From the NCBI GenBank assembly GCA_029547745.1, contig JAKPOQ010000033.1:1-59128 (forward strand): a DNA stretch of 59,128 nucleotides, in the 5' to 3' direction. Source of the DNA: Actinomycetes bacterium. GTDB taxonomy: Bacteria > Actinomycetota > Thermoleophilia > UBA2241. Both the position numbers and the translations under genes were made by a program. Below are positions 1,477-6,199 of this stretch, piece after piece (position 1 is the first letter of the stretch; every line of letters begins with the position of its first letter). Below the pieces are notes generated by a model. That model was given only the letters and a program-made list of their open reading frames with translations. It was not told where the DNA came from and searched no databases.

Positions 1477-1497
1477 CCGCGCGAGCGTGGGCTCAGC
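1470..1497. terminator. hairpin at the 3' end of mglA
   Basis: A perfect 9-bp inverted repeat (1470-1478 with 1489-1497, GCTGAGCCC/GGGCTCAGC) has a 10-base loop. It overlaps the mglA stop codon at 1493-1495 and sits between convergent genes, so it could act in both directions. There is no clear T-tract on either side, so intrinsic termination is likely but not certain. Confidence 0.5.
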
Positions 1498-2071
1498 CCG
1501 TCTTCGAGATGACCTGCTTGCAGACGCTCTTCAGCGTGTCGAAGACGCCCTTGCCGGTGATGGCGCTCGCCTCGACGACCGGCGAGTTCGTGTGGTTGAG
1601 GAGCTCGTTGAGGTCTTCGACGCTGAACACGTCGGTCAGGTCGCGCTTGTTCATCTGGATGACGAACCCAAGCTTGGCGAGATCGTCGCCCTGGGCGAGG
1701 AGGTTGTCCCAGAGGTTGAGGTAGCTCTCGACGTTCTCGTCGAGGCGCGTGATCTGCGAGTCGGCGACGAAGATCACGCCGTCGACGCCCTGCAGCACCA
1801 GCTTACGGCTGGCGTTGTAATAGCTCTGGCCCGGGACCGTGTAGAGGTGGAAGCGTGTCTGCATGCCCTTGACCGTCCCCAGTGTGAGGGGGAGGAAGTC
1901 GAAGTACAGGGTGCGCTCCTCTTCGGTGGCGATCGAGACCAGCTTGCCGCGCGCCTCAGGGTTGATGGTGCGGTGGATGTACTGGATGTTCGTGGTCTTG
2001 CCGCAGAGCCCGCAGCCGTAGTAGACGATCTTGTAGTTGATCTCGCGCGCGGCGAAGTTGATCAGCGGCAT
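1493..2071 (-). CDS. mglA: MglA-like small Ras-type GTPase
   Basis: This is a 192-residue single-domain GTPase. The P-loop GCGLCGKT lies at residues 19-26, followed by the MglA-type switch region with TVPGQ, the NKRD specificity motif and SAITGKG. In Myxococcus, MglA sets cell polarity for type IV pili and gliding with a roadblock partner (MglB). The roadblock gene here is 10 bases upstream in the same operon, so it is probably the GTPase-activating or effector partner. Start ATG at 2071. The symbol rests on family resemblance; the process controlled in this organism is not known. Confidence 0.88.
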   Translation of the reverse strand: MPLINFAAREINYKIVYYGCGLCGKTTNIQYIHRTINPEARGKLVSIATEEERTLYFDFLPLTLGTVKGMQTRFHLYTVPGQSYYNASRKLVLQGVDGVIFVADSQITRLDENVESYLNLWDNLLAQGDDLAKLGFVIQMNKRDLTDVFSVEDLNELLNHTNSPVVEASAITGKGVFDTLKSVCKQVISKTG

Positions 2072-2081
2072 CGACCTGGCC

Positions 2082-2567
2082 TCACAGGTCCTTGAACAGG
2101 TCGTCGATCGCGAGCCCGGCGTCGGCCTCGAACCCCGAGTCCATGGCCGGACCCTCTTCGTCGTCCGGCCCCTCGAAGACCTGGCGAAGGACCTCCATCG
2201 CGCGCTGGGTGTACAGGCGGACCTTGCCCACCTGAGTCTGGCGCCCGAACGTGACGATCAGCAGCACCTGGTCGGTGACCTGCGAGACGTGCAGGTTCAG
2301 CGCCTTGCCCTCGTGGAACAGCAGCGTGAACTCGTTCTCGTCGAGGATCTTGGCGAGTTGCCGGGTCGCGGCGAACGAGCTCGCCGCGAGCGAAGCCAGC
2401 GACAGGGTCTCCGGATGGTACTCGTCCGAGGCGGTGGTGATGGGCTGGCCCGAGGCCGAGATCAGCGCGAGGAAGCTCGACCCCGACACCTCCTTGAGCT
2501 TCCGCAGCAGGTCGTCACAGCGGTCGAGCTGGCGGTCGTTGATGACCAGCCCCTTGCGCCTGGCCAT
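2082..2567 (-). CDS. roadblock/LC7-domain protein
   Basis: This 161-residue protein has a roadblock/LC7 fold: CDDLLRKLKEVSG helix, then FLALISASGQPI and later LLFHEGKALNLHVSQV strands. The C-terminal tail (about 30 residues) is acidic. Start ATG at 2567 is chosen because GAAGGGAG lies 6-7 bases upstream; an in-frame extension upstream has no such site. It is transcribed just ahead of mglA with a 10-base gap. Roadblock proteins regulate Ras-like GTPases, so MglA is the likely partner. The order (roadblock first) matches MglB-MglA pairs. Confidence 0.85.
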   Translation of the reverse strand: MARRKGLVINDRQLDRCDDLLRKLKEVSGSSFLALISASGQPITTASDEYHPETLSLASLAASSFAATRQLAKILDENEFTLLFHEGKALNLHVSQVTDQVLLIVTFGRQTQVGKVRLYTQRAMEVLRQVFEGPDDEEGPAMDSGFEADAGLAIDDLFKDL

Positions 2568-2602
2568 GCACGCTCCCTTCGTGGCCTCGTCGCGGTGTGC
2601 GC

Positions 2603-2608
2603 AGTATA
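2603..2608 (-). promoter_or_regulatory. possible -10 element for the roadblock-mglA operon
   Basis: TATACT on the minus strand lies 36 bases upstream of the roadblock start. No convincing -35 is visible at 17-18 bases. The gap 2568-2708 separates divergent operons and must hold promoters for both. For the plus strand I see only a strong AGGAGG site before the PATAN gene. Confidence 0.35.
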
Positions 2609-2708
2609 CAACGGTGCGTTGTCGGCGCTGCCGACACCTGGCGCGGGCTCGGCGTGCCCTGCCCAAGCTCACGCGACGCCCGCCCTTCGTGTATCGTCAG
2701 GAGGCCGC

Positions 2709-3470
2709 ATGAGCATGAGTCCCGGCGACGGCGCGCGGCGGCCGCGTCGTCGGCAAGACTGGAATGGGGCGTGGGCCGCACGGGACCCGAAGCGGGGCGA
2801 GGGTCCCACGGGCCCGACGCCCGGAACAGGGCGCAGGCTGGGTGACGCGCACGTGGGCTTGAAGGGCGATCTTGGGGAGCTGGCGCTCAGCGACCTCGTC
2901 GAGATGATGTCGATGGGCGACAAGACAGGCCGTCTGGTGCTGAGCGACGGCGGTGGGCGGGTCGCCGGCGAGCTGGCGTTCCGCGACGGTCTCCTTGTCG
3001 CAGCGTCCCGCGGCTCGCTGAGGGGCGAAAAGGCCTTCTACGCGCTTCTCGACATGCGCGAGGGCACTTTCGATTTCGACGGCGACGCCTACGTTGACGA
3101 TGAGAGTTGTAACCTTCGCGCAGGGATCCAGGCGGCATCACTGCTTGTCGAAGGCATGCGTCGGCTCGACGAGATCCAACAGATGCGCGCCCGCTACCCG
3201 GCTCCGGCCGTGGTCCGGCTGCAGCGTGCGGGCGCCGGGACCGACGACGCGAGCGAGGCACGCGTGCTCGCGCACGTCGGTCCCGGCGCCCGCACCGTCG
3301 GCGACGTCGTCGAAGGCATCCTCGTCGACGGCGAGTTCGACGAGTACGATGCGCTCAAGGCGATCGGCCGTCTCGCCGACAGTGGCATCGTCGCCGTCCA
3401 GATCCCGAGGGATCTGGACGGCGGGACGGTCGGGCACGGGGAACCGCCTCAACCTGAGCTTGAACGTTGA
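2709..3470 (+). CDS. DUF4388 (PATAN) domain protein
   Basis: A 253-residue protein. The first 45 residues are basic and low-complexity. A PATAN/DUF4388 domain follows at about residues 50-160: the segment GDLGELALSDLVEMM, then KTGRLVLSDGGG, LAFRDGLLVAAS and EKAFYALLDMREGTFDF. The last 80 residues may be a second small helical domain. PATAN domains are two-component-associated adaptors in bacteria with complex motility or development. Start ATG at 2709 has AGGAGG 5 bases upstream; ATG at 2715 is an alternative. The gene is divergent from the roadblock-mglA pair. Confidence 0.85.
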   Translation: MSMSPGDGARRPRRRQDWNGAWAARDPKRGEGPTGPTPGTGRRLGDAHVGLKGDLGELALSDLVEMMSMGDKTGRLVLSDGGGRVAGELAFRDGLLVAASRGSLRGEKAFYALLDMREGTFDFDGDAYVDDESCNLRAGIQAASLLVEGMRRLDEIQQMRARYPAPAVVRLQRAGAGTDDASEARVLAHVGPGARTVGDVVEGILVDGEFDEYDALKAIGRLADSGIVAVQIPRDLDGGTVGHGEPPQPELER

Positions 3471-3521: not shown

Positions 3522-3800
3522 ATGGACGACATCGTCGACCTGGTCTCGCGATCTGACGACGAGCTTCGGGCGCTGATCGCCCGACTCGAGACCGAAGAGC
3601 GCGAGATCTCCCGCCGGCGGCGCATCTTGCAGGGTAAGCTCGACATCCTGCGCGCCGAGCTCGTCATGCGCCTCCAGAAGAAGCGCACCGAAGGCCAGCC
3701 GGTCATCAGCGCCGACGACGTCGAAGGCCTCAAGCGTATCCTCGCCGGCGAGGGTCCGGGTCGCCGCGGTGAGGTCTCCGGAGACGTCACGGAGGAGTAG
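3522..3800 (+). CDS. rsiG: RsiG-like c-di-GMP-responsive anti-sigma factor
   Basis: A 92-residue, highly charged alpha-helical protein. Residues 26-41 match the RsiG signature E(X)3S(X)2R(X)3Q(X)3D exactly: E26, S30, R33, Q37, D41. In Streptomyces, RsiG holds the sigma factor WhiG when c-di-GMP is bound, using two such motifs on an antiparallel helix pair. Rubrobacter RsiG has one motif and works as a homodimer. Only one copy is present here, so a Rubrobacter-type dimer is predicted. Start ATG at 3522 is 8 bases after GGAGGG; the in-frame GTG at 3513 overlaps that site. The cognate sigma factor is not in this window. Confidence 0.78.
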   Translation: MDDIVDLVSRSDDELRALIARLETEEREISRRRRILQGKLDILRAELVMRLQKKRTEGQPVISADDVEGLKRILAGEGPGRRGEVSGDVTEE

Positions 3801-3801
3801 G

Positions 3802-4254
3802 GTGTTCTGTCCCAACTGCGGGTTCAGGAACTCCGACGGCGCCGCCTTCTGCACGCGTTGCGGCGCCAGCCTCGTCGGCGACCAGCCCGACGACCAGACG
3901 ACGATCAGCTTTCAGCCCGGGGAAGAGGAGGAGCTTGGCCCCGTCGCGGGCGCGCCGCGCGACAAGCCTGCCCTTGTGATCCGCAGCGGCGGCGGCAGAG
4001 CCGGTGAGGTCTACCCGCTCGAGGGCGAGCGCACGAGCATCGGCCGCCACCCGGACGCCGACATCTTCCTCGACGACGTGACGGTGTCACGCAACCACGC
4101 CGTCGTCGTCCGCGGGGGTGAGCGGTTCACGCTGACCGACCAGGGTAGCCTCAACGGCACTTTCGTCAACCGCCGGCGTACGGACGAGACGGTACTCACC
4201 GACGGCGACGAGATACAGATCGGCAAGTACAAGCTGACCTTCATCGTGCCGTGA
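3802..4254 (+). CDS. zinc-ribbon FHA-domain protein, GarA-like
   Basis: A 150-residue protein. A Cys4 zinc ribbon lies at residues 3-20 (CPNC...CTRC) and an FHA domain at about 65-145, with GRHPDAD, the phosphothreonine-binding SRNH and the LNGTFVN turn. Between them, TT at residues 33-34 recalls the ETT phosphorylation site of GarA/OdhI, whose FHA domain binds phosphothreonine and regulates glutamate and 2-oxoglutarate metabolism. GTG at 3802 is preferred: GGAGG ends 6 bases upstream, and it is one base after the rsiG stop. The next gene is an FtsR-type MerR regulator, the same pairing as mycobacterial garA and its neighbour. Confidence 0.8.
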   Translation: MFCPNCGFRNSDGAAFCTRCGASLVGDQPDDQTTISFQPGEEEELGPVAGAPRDKPALVIRSGGGRAGEVYPLEGERTSIGRHPDADIFLDDVTVSRNHAVVVRGGERFTLTDQGSLNGTFVNRRRTDETVLTDGDEIQIGKYKLTFIVP

Positions 4255-5006
4255 CCTCTGCGAGTGCCGTGACTCCCGAGAGCGTCGAGCTGCTGTTCGA
4301 CATCGAGGACGAGAAGCTCCTCACCATCGGCTCGGTGGTAGAGCGCCTCAAGGGCGAGTTCCCCGACATCAGCGTCAGTAAGCTGCGCTACCTCGAGGAA
4401 CAGGGCCTGATCATGCCGCGGCGGACCAAGGCGGGCTATCGTCTCTACTCGCAGGACGACTTCAACCGTCTCGTACGCGTGCTCACCATGCAGCGCGACG
4501 AGTACCTGCCGCTCAAGGTCATCCGCCGCGAGCTCGAGCGCAGCCCGGCCGCGGCCGCGCCGACAGCGCGGCAGGGGCTGCGCAAGGCCGACTTCGTCGT
4601 CCCGGGGGAGGAGCGTACTTACACCGCCGAGGAGGTCATGCAGCTCACCGGGGCGGACAGGGCGCTGCTCGACGAGCTCGAGGAGTACGAACTGGTCAAG
4701 GGGCGCCAAGTCAGCGGCGTGCGCTGCTACAGCGAGAACGACTGCGGCATCATCGGCGCCGCGGCGCAGTTGGCCGTCACGGGGCTGCGGCCCAAGAACC
4801 TGCGTCTGATCAAGAGCGCCGTCGACCGCGAGCTCGGGTTGGTCGAGCAGGTGCTCCTGCCGGCGCTCAGGTCGCGACGCCCGGAGCGCCGCCGCGAGGG
4901 CCTGGACCAGCTTGAAGAGATCGTCCAGGCGACGACGCAACTGCGTCAGCTCCTGCTGACGCGCGGCATCCGTCGCCTGACCGCCGGCGGACCGGGGGAA
5001 GGCTGA
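4251..5006 (+). CDS. ftsR: MerR-family regulator, FtsR-type
   Basis: A 251-residue protein with an N-terminal MerR winged-helix (about residues 23-95: [35 protein letters not shown]). A second MerR-like helical segment ([13 protein letters not shown]...) and a C-terminal helical region follow. Two-part MerR proteins next to a GarA-type FHA gene match actinobacterial FtsR, a regulator linked to cell division in Corynebacterium. The GTG start overlaps the FHA stop codon (GTGA), so translation is coupled. The ligand and target genes cannot be read from sequence. Confidence 0.75.
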
Positions 5007-5122: not shown

Positions 5123-5650
5123 ATGACTGACGGGCTGATCGACCTCGCCGCCAAAGTGCGCGCGATCCCGGACTTTCCCAAGGAGGGCGTCCTCTTTCGC
5201 GACATCATGCCCTTGTTGCAGGATCCGGCCGCCCTGCGTGAGGCCGTCGACCGCATCGTCGAGTACGGCACCGGCAGGCATATCGACGTGGTCCTCGGGG
5301 CGGAGGCGCGCGGGTTCATCCTCGGCGCCGCAGTCGCCTACGGCCTCGGCGCCGGGTTCGTCTGCGCGCGGAAGTCCGGGAAGTTGCCGTACGAGACGGT
5401 GTCGGCCGAATACGACCTCGAGTACGGCACCGACAAGCTCGAGATCCACGCCGACGCCATCAAGCCGGGGCAGAACGTGCTCATCCACGACGACCTTCTC
5501 GCGACCGGCGGGACGGCGAAAGCCAAGATCGAGCTCGTCGAGAAGCTCGGCGGCAACGTCGCCGGGCTGGCGTTCCTGATCGAGCTCAGCGCCCTCAAGG
5601 GGCGCGACAAGCTCCGCGGCTACGACGTCTTCAGTCTGATCGCCTACTGA
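5123..5650 (+). CDS. apt: adenine phosphoribosyltransferase
   Basis: A 175-residue purine-salvage enzyme making AMP from adenine and PRPP. It has [18 protein letters not shown] near the N-terminus, GAEARGF and the PRPP-binding loop [14 protein letters not shown]. Length and motifs are standard. ATG at 5123 follows GAGGAGTCACG. The 116-base gap after ftsR includes the perfect palindrome GAGCCCGGGCTC at 5005-5016 on the ftsR stop codon, too tight to be an ordinary terminator. Confidence 0.95.
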
Positions 5651-5699
5651 GGGCCGCCCCCGGACGCGGCCCGTCAGGAGGGGACGAACAGGCGTTCGT

Positions 5700-5877
5700 C
5701 TGCGAGCGGTCCACGCCGACGTCTACCTGGCGCGTCGAGACCTCGTACACCTCGTGCACGCTGCTCGTGGGTACCACCAGTCCGTCGACGTTCTGGCCCG
5801 GGCGCAGGTCAAGCGCCTCGCGGATGCGCTTGGGCGATCACGACCTGAAACTTCGGCGAGGTGGTGACAGTCGTCAC
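5700..5877 (-). pseudogene. decayed AbrB-antitoxin/PIN-toxin remnant
   Basis: On the minus strand a GTG at 5877, with CGGAG 6 bases upstream, opens a frame reading TTVTTSPKFQVVI, a typical swapped-hairpin AbrB/VapB antitoxin start. The frame then hits a stop at 5809-5811. Skipping one extra base near 5835 restores PKRIREALDLRPGQ, the expected continuation. Shortly after, the restored frame reads LVVPTSSVHEVYEV, which resembles the PTxxxYEV segment of a PIN-domain toxin rather than an antitoxin tail. This suggests a frameshift plus an internal deletion fusing the two genes of a VapBC-like pair. The downstream boundary is uncertain. Confidence 0.6.
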
Positions 5878-5880
5878 GAC

Positions 5881-6199
5881 GATCTCCGACGATCCCCTAC
5901 GAAGAGGGAACGGCAGGAAAGGAGGGAGACGACGGCGGGGGGGTGCCGCACGTCGAGGCACGGGGAAGTTGCGCGGTCCGGCGTCTACTTTACATAACGG
6001 CGATTATCGTGCGTTACGTTCACGTTCGAAGTCGACGTTACCGCCGAGTCCGGGGAACCTTGGCGATGTGTTTGTCGGCGGGCCGGTGGGCGGCCTGTCG
6101 GCGCGGCGGTGTGATGGCGGCCTGTCGACGCGGCGGTGTGGTGGCGGCCTGTCGGCGCGGCGGTGTCGCGTGTCGCGTCTTTCGGTGCGGCTTAGCCGT
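5881..6199. other. non-coding gap between the toxin remnant and nudix
   Basis: I see no gene here. The stretch 5990-6040 is noticeably less GC-rich than its surroundings. The end of the gap is filled by the 27-bp tandem repeat described separately. It lies downstream of the nudix stop, so it may hold the end of that operon, but no hairpin with a T-tract was found. Confidence 0.5.
6089..6169. repeat. 27-bp tandem repeat, three copies
   Basis: Head-to-tail copies at 6089-6115, 6116-6142 and 6143-6169 each begin GGCGGCCTGTCG and continue to GCGGCGGTGT. They differ only at one internal base and the last two or three bases. The block lies 30 bases past the nudix stop codon. The period is a multiple of three and the frame is open on both strands, but nothing suggests translation. 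Confidence 0.9.

What the first reader, a model, noticed from the sequence alone, without database searches (positions are those of the whole stretch)
3522..3800. RsiG homologue with exactly one c-di-GMP motif
Residues 26-41 satisfy E(X)3S(X)2R(X)3Q(X)3D at every fixed position (E26, S30, R33, Q37, D41), in a 92-residue helical protein. Known Streptomyces RsiG has two copies and binds WhiG; Rubrobacter RsiG has one and dimerises. A single-copy form here suggests a c-di-GMP-controlled sigma switch of the ancestral type.
Basis: partly seen in the sequence, partly recalled or inferred. Interest (0 to 1): 0.8.

Follow-up and report, generated by a model that had tools for sequence, protein, structure and literature searches.

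The report
Single-motif RsiG switch controlling pili
This small gene encodes an already described type of protein that, when the signal molecule c-di-GMP is plentiful, is expected to trap a gene-activating sigma factor; here a sigma-specific start signal hidden inside a neighbouring gene suggests the switch turns on the bacterium's type IV pili.

Summary
In detail: window 3522-3800 (+) encodes a 92-aa protein with exactly one E(X)3S(X)2R(X)3Q(X)3D motif (E26, S30, R33, Q37, D41). It is a genuine RsiG: Pfam RsiG 56.4 bits (cutoff 27), PDB hits to S. venezuelae and Rubrobacter RsiG. The genome has one WhiG (NCBIfam WhiG equivalog, above cutoff), GGDEF enzymes, type IV pilus ATPases and no flagellin. 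The organism is a Thermoleophilia bacterium (GTDB genus of UBA2241). Single-motif, homodimeric RsiG was already described in Thermoleophilia and Rubrobacteria (Schumacher 2021, PMC8325347), so this is a new member of a known kind. What is new is an output: a WhiG/sigma28-type promoter (TAAA-N15-GCCGATAA) lies inside the aroE coding sequence upstream of pilB-pilT-pilC in all 10 family genomes where the region could be read, conserved at synonymous sites (summed mismatches 6; codon-resampled minimum 26 in 200,000). This places type IV pili under the switch in a lineage not examined in that paper. rsiG also sits beside mglA/mglB in every family member read, which hints at, but does not prove, a surface-motility control locus.

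The parts
3522..3800 (+). rsiG: 92-aa single-motif RsiG anti-sigma factor; c-di-GMP motif residues E26 S30 R33 Q37 D41 (codons within 3597-3644)
3802..4254 (+). zinc-ribbon + FHA domain protein (GarA/OdhI-like), GTG start 1 base after the rsiG stop, probably co-transcribed
4251..5006 (+). ftsR: MerR-family regulator FtsR, overlaps the FHA gene by 4 bases
   Evidence: NCBIfam FtsR 207.9 bits, cutoff 150
2700..3470 (+). DUF4388-domain protein directly upstream of rsiG, same strand (start not fixed)
   Evidence: Pfam PF14332 62.1 bits, cutoff 25
2082..2672 (-). mglB-like Roadblock/LC7 protein, divergent (true start inside this ORF)
   Evidence: Pfam Robl_LC7 40.6 bits, cutoff 23; NCBIfam MglB model matched below its cutoff
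1493..2071 (-). mglA-like small Ras-family GTPase
   Evidence: Pfam Arf/Ras over cutoff
5123..5650 (+). apt-like phosphoribosyltransferase, the 3' flank of the conserved gene order
   Evidence: gene named from sequence; order conserved

Best explanation
The gene encodes a single-motif RsiG. Two copies should pair as an antiparallel coiled coil, bind a c-di-GMP dimer between their two motifs, and only then hold the sigma factor WhiG (encoded elsewhere in this genome, G000:C15) away from RNA polymerase. When c-di-GMP falls, WhiG is released and transcribes from TAAA-N15-GCCGATAA promoters, one of which lies inside aroE and drives the pilB-pilT-pilC type IV pilus operon. Shown here: RsiG homology, single motif, presence and contact-residue conservation of WhiG, conserved WhiG-type promoter before the pilus operon. 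Inferred from the Rubrobacter structure: dimerisation, c-di-GMP binding, sigma sequestration.
For: RsiG membership. WhiG present, over the WhiG equivalog cutoff, next to rpsB/xerC/dprA/comM. Sigma residues that touch c-di-GMP in Rubrobacter (K53, G57, R58) are K56, G60, R61 here, and R43, partner of RsiG D39, is R46 while RsiG has D6; these are nearly invariant in 23 class WhiGs. Nine or more GGDEF proteins, type IV pilus ATPases, flagellin absent. Promoter inside aroE in 10 of 10 readable family genomes; mean 0.6 mismatches of 12 against 5.2 for the next best of 511 homologous windows; codon resampling gives sum 37.7 on average, minimum 26 in 200,000, observed 6. RsiG and WhiG co-occur in 52 of 60 genomes and are both missing in 4.
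Against: No binding or dimer test. The four genomes lacking both genes are one genus, so the co-occurrence rests on few events; G022 has WhiG but no RsiG and G048 RsiG without a scored WhiG. The pilus promoter lies in coding sequence about 200-270 bases before pilB, outside the intergenic limit used in PMC8325347, and the copy in this genome has one mismatch (TCAA). The N-terminal linker has no glycine, unlike the published single-motif set.
Confidence: 0.8

Rival explanations
1. It is an RsiG that binds c-di-GMP but its main partner is another sigma factor of this genome, for instance the SigB/SigF-like sigma encoded next to the pilus operon.
For: Several SigB/F-like sigma factors exist, and two are encoded at the pilus locus of the sister genome G001.
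Against: The only sigma with the full WhiG family score and the c-di-GMP-contacting K/G/R triad examined is WhiG; all published RsiG partners are WhiG (PMC8325347).
Confidence: 0.08
2. RsiG-WhiG pair is real but the pilus operon is not its target: the aroE-internal sequence is kept for another reason (coding or RNA structure) and the sigma consensus match is coincidence.
For: The site is inside a gene; in this genome the -35 has a mismatch; the sister family f4 lacks it.
Against: Conservation is confined to the -35 and -10 codons (same-codon fraction 1.0) and absent in the spacer (0.31-0.36), uses rare codons (AAA about 2-16%, GAT 6-30%), and the spacing is 15 in all.
Confidence: 0.12
3. A degenerate RsiG-like coiled coil that no longer binds c-di-GMP and serves the FHA/FtsR operon in another way.
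For: Tightly coupled to FHA and ftsR genes in a conserved order.
Against: All five ligand residues kept in all loci read; invariant E26, S30, R33, D41 across 25 named relatives.
Confidence: 0.04

Closest known systems
Rubrobacter radiotolerans RsiG, (RsiG)2-(c-di-GMP)2-WhiG switch (PDB 7lq2, 7lq3, 7lq4; PMC8325347)
   Same: Single motif, small helical protein, cognate WhiG with the same c-di-GMP-contacting residues, type IV pilus genes as apparent output.
   Different: Different class; N-terminal linker without glycine; K60 and R72 are R27 and K39; WhiG N47 is A50; pilus promoter lies inside aroE rather than in an intergenic region.
Single-motif RsiGs of Thermoleophilia (Patulibacter medicamentivorans, Conexibacter woesei, Thermoleophilum album; PMC8325347)
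   Same: Same class and same single-motif architecture; P. medicamentivorans RsiG (L246) is 57% identical over the aligned part.
   Different: Most class members, including RsiG of C. woesei, have H at the Q position; this one has Q. Their target genes were not reported in the paper sections read.
Streptomyces venezuelae RsiG (PDB 6pfj, 6pfv)
   Same: Same motif and family; both repeats match the window protein.
   Different: Two motifs in one chain, works as a monomer, controls sporulation.

Membership tests
RsiG | E(X)3S(X)2R(X)3[Q/H](X)3D motif on a long helix | tested here: met
   E26 S30 R33 Q37 D41; helix 12-56 predicted
RsiG | Sequence homology to the family profile and solved members | tested here: met
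   Pfam PF22802 56.4 vs 27 bits; 6pfj 1.4e-11, 7lq2 1.3e-9
RsiG, single-motif type | Exactly one motif, no second helix | tested here: met
   92-aa ORF, one motif; same in the 13 family members read
RsiG | Cognate WhiG sigma factor in the genome | tested here: met
   G000:C15:1756-2433 (-), FliA_WhiG 278 vs 189.6 and WhiG 365.6 vs 343 bits
RsiG, single-motif type | Glycine-containing linkers on both sides of the coiled-coil helix | tested here: inconclusive
   C-terminal side has G58; N-terminal 11 residues have none
RsiG, single-motif type | Antiparallel homodimer | not testable with these tools
   Only monomer prediction available; Foldseek of the lone helix is uninformative
RsiG | Binds c-di-GMP and, so armed, WhiG | not testable with these tools
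   Needs purified protein

The most novel reading that the evidence does not exclude
In this lineage the c-di-GMP/RsiG/WhiG switch, the MglA-MglB small-GTPase pair and the DUF4388 protein form one control locus for type IV pilus motility: c-di-GMP sets pilus gene transcription through WhiG (promoter inside aroE), possibly also acts on the MshEN domain of PilB, while the neighbouring GTPase sets pilus polarity.
Probability: 0.3. Interest if true: 0.6.

Novelty: new member of a known kind. Interest (0 to 1): 0.45.

Why it matters
RsiG-WhiG is described as the only known sigma/anti-sigma pair controlled by c-di-GMP (PMC8325347). What the single-motif form controls was worked out only for Rubrobacter. 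A WhiG-type promoter kept by selection inside aroE before the pilus operon, across an uncultured Thermoleophilia family, is independent support that type IV pili are the old output of the switch, and it names an exact site to test.

Tried and rejected
WhiG-type pattern within the window: 12 matches at up to 3 mismatches (5.2 expected), none better than 3, so no claim that WhiG transcribes rsiG. Most other one-mismatch matches in relatives are unsupported by conservation. Foldseek of the AlphaFold model against PDB found nothing (best E 6), as expected for a lone helix. A region-2-only hit to FliA/WhiG (C81) is a SigH-like sigma beside a pilT-like gene, not a second WhiG. First pass of the second promoter site failed because minus-strand loci were not turned round; corrected.

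Full report
Observation. Window 3522-3800 (+) encodes MDDIVDLVSRSDDELRALIARLETEEREISRRRRILQGKLDILRAELVMRLQKKRTEGQ..., 92 aa, with one E(X)3S(X)2R(X)3Q(X)3D motif at E26, S30, R33, Q37, D41. It scores 56.4 bits to Pfam RsiG (cutoff 27) and matches solved RsiGs of S. venezuelae (1.4e-11, both of its repeats) and R. radiotolerans (1.3e-9). AlphaFold (25 sequences) gives helices 4-8, 12-56 and 64-74; by the alignment, Rubrobacter's coiled-coil residues 45-83 correspond to 12-50 here.

Organism. The nearest genome (same genus) carries its rsiG on a contig of 114,194 bases, which is DDYF01000027.1, 'Thermoleophilia bacterium UBA2241'. The window's genome G000 is therefore a Thermoleophilia MAG of that GTDB genus (2.27 Mb, 203 contigs, 95.8% complete). 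Thermoleophilia and Rubrobacteria are the two classes in which Schumacher et al. 2021 (PMC8325347) found single-motif RsiG, showed c-di-GMP and WhiG binding, and solved the Rubrobacter homodimer complex. The protein is thus a new member of a known kind.

Partner. The genome has one full FliA/WhiG sigma (G000:C15:1756-2433, minus; 278 bits vs 189.6), over the WhiG equivalog cutoff (365.6 vs 343), located by rpsB, xerC, dprA and comM (names read from the sequences). Against 7lq4, the residues that touch c-di-GMP in Rubrobacter WhiG (K53, G57, R58) are K56, G60, R61; R43, which pairs with RsiG D39, is R46, and RsiG D39 is D6 here; N47 is not kept (A50). In 23 WhiGs of the class these positions are nearly invariant. 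Of 60 relatives, 52 have both RsiG and WhiG over the cutoffs, 2 RsiG only, 2 WhiG only, 4 neither (Fisher p = 4e-4), but the four belong to one genus, so this may be a single joint loss.

Setting. rsiG lies between a DUF4388 gene and a zinc-ribbon/FHA gene, followed by ftsR (NCBIfam FtsR 207.9 vs 150) and an apt-like gene; mglB-like and mglA-like genes are divergent. mglA/mglB next to rsiG was found in all 13 family members read and in other families of the class, while ftsR follows rsiG almost throughout. In genome G017 the pilB operon and rsiG lie about 10 kb apart on one contig. MglA/MglB control pilus polarity in Myxococcus (own knowledge), so the neighbourhood is suggestive only.

Output. 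GGDEF proteins are present and flagellin is absent, while type IV pilus ATPases are present. The WhiG/flagellar promoter consensus used for Rubrobacter (TAAA, GCCGATAA), with spacing 15, has only two matches with at most one mismatch in the whole genome. One lies at G000:C162:595-621, inside aroE and about 270 bases before pilB-pilT-pilC. The same position of aroE holds the site in all 10 family genomes where it could be read: five perfect, four with one mismatch, one with two. Among 511 homologous windows of the aroE alignment this one averages 0.6 mismatches and the next best 5.2. Keeping the amino acids and redrawing codons by local usage gives a summed mismatch of 37.7 on average and never below 26 in 200,000 trials; observed 6. 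Same-codon agreement is 1.0 at the codons that form -35 and -10, and 0.31-0.36 in the spacer, against 0.52 overall; aroE is only 52% identical (median) among these genomes. The draws treat genomes as independent, so the number is not a strict probability, but the contrast within the site does not depend on that. The sister family f4 lacks the site at this position. In PMC8325347 the pilus link was shown for Rubrobacter by promoter matches and mapped starts; here it is extended to Thermoleophilia by an independent kind of evidence.

The second match in this genome lies 241 bases before a 65-aa gene of unknown function (MIYCVVPPELGEE..., no Pfam match). Sites with 0-3 mismatches at spacing 15 precede the same gene in all 11 family genomes that could be read, 125-284 bases upstream, and not in f4. 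In this genome a strong hairpin lies between site and gene, so this target is less secure.

PilB of the operon carries an MshEN domain (80.3 vs 23.1 bits), a known c-di-GMP-binding domain (PMC5013675), so c-di-GMP could act on the pilus both at transcription and at the motor; its binding residues were not examined here.

How it probably works. High c-di-GMP: RsiG dimer plus c-di-GMP dimer holds WhiG. Low c-di-GMP: WhiG is freed and transcribes the pilus operon. The direction and the dimer are taken from the Rubrobacter and Streptomyces work; nothing biochemical was tested here.

Evolution. Two genomes of the class carry twin-motif RsiG at the same locus (G016, G026). G026's repeats look arranged as in Streptomyces. 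G016's two halves are 54% identical over 42 residues, more than the 33-40% quoted for Streptomyces-type RsiGs, and close single-motif relatives surround it, which fits a separate duplication in place; no tree was built, so this is a lead.

Noticed in passing
L079 5557-7839 (-) (genome G016): A 761-aa ORF that reads as an acyl/acetoacetyl-CoA synthetase (AMP-binding 157 bits) with a C-terminal twin-motif RsiG-like hairpin (Pfam RsiG 32.9 bits, cutoff 27; motifs 38 residues apart): possibly a c-di-GMP-binding domain fused to a metabolic enzyme. Assembly or frame error not excluded.
   Followed up: partly
L078 about 5530-5994 (+) (genome G016): A further twin-motif RsiG-like protein, motifs 81 residues apart (Pfam RsiG 39.9 bits), so this genome has three twin-motif RsiG-like stretches.
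   Followed up: partly
L077 5710-6231 (-) (G016) and L065 5379-6071 (+) (G026): Twin-motif RsiG at the conserved ftsR locus within Thermoleophilia; in G016 the halves are 54% identical, suggesting an independent duplication.
   Followed up: partly
L131 4065-4091 and 4333-4527 (+) (G000:C21): Conserved WhiG-type promoter-like site before a 65-aa Arg-rich protein of unknown function in all readable family members.
   Followed up: partly
L163 (G001:C8, pilus locus): Two further sigma-70-family genes at the pilus locus, one upstream of alaS and one between pilC and a pilin-like gene.
   Followed up: no
L018 1135-1818 (-) (G000:C81): A sigma factor scoring over the cut-off of an NCBIfam sporulation SigH model, beside a pilT-like gene, in an actinobacterium.
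   Followed up: no
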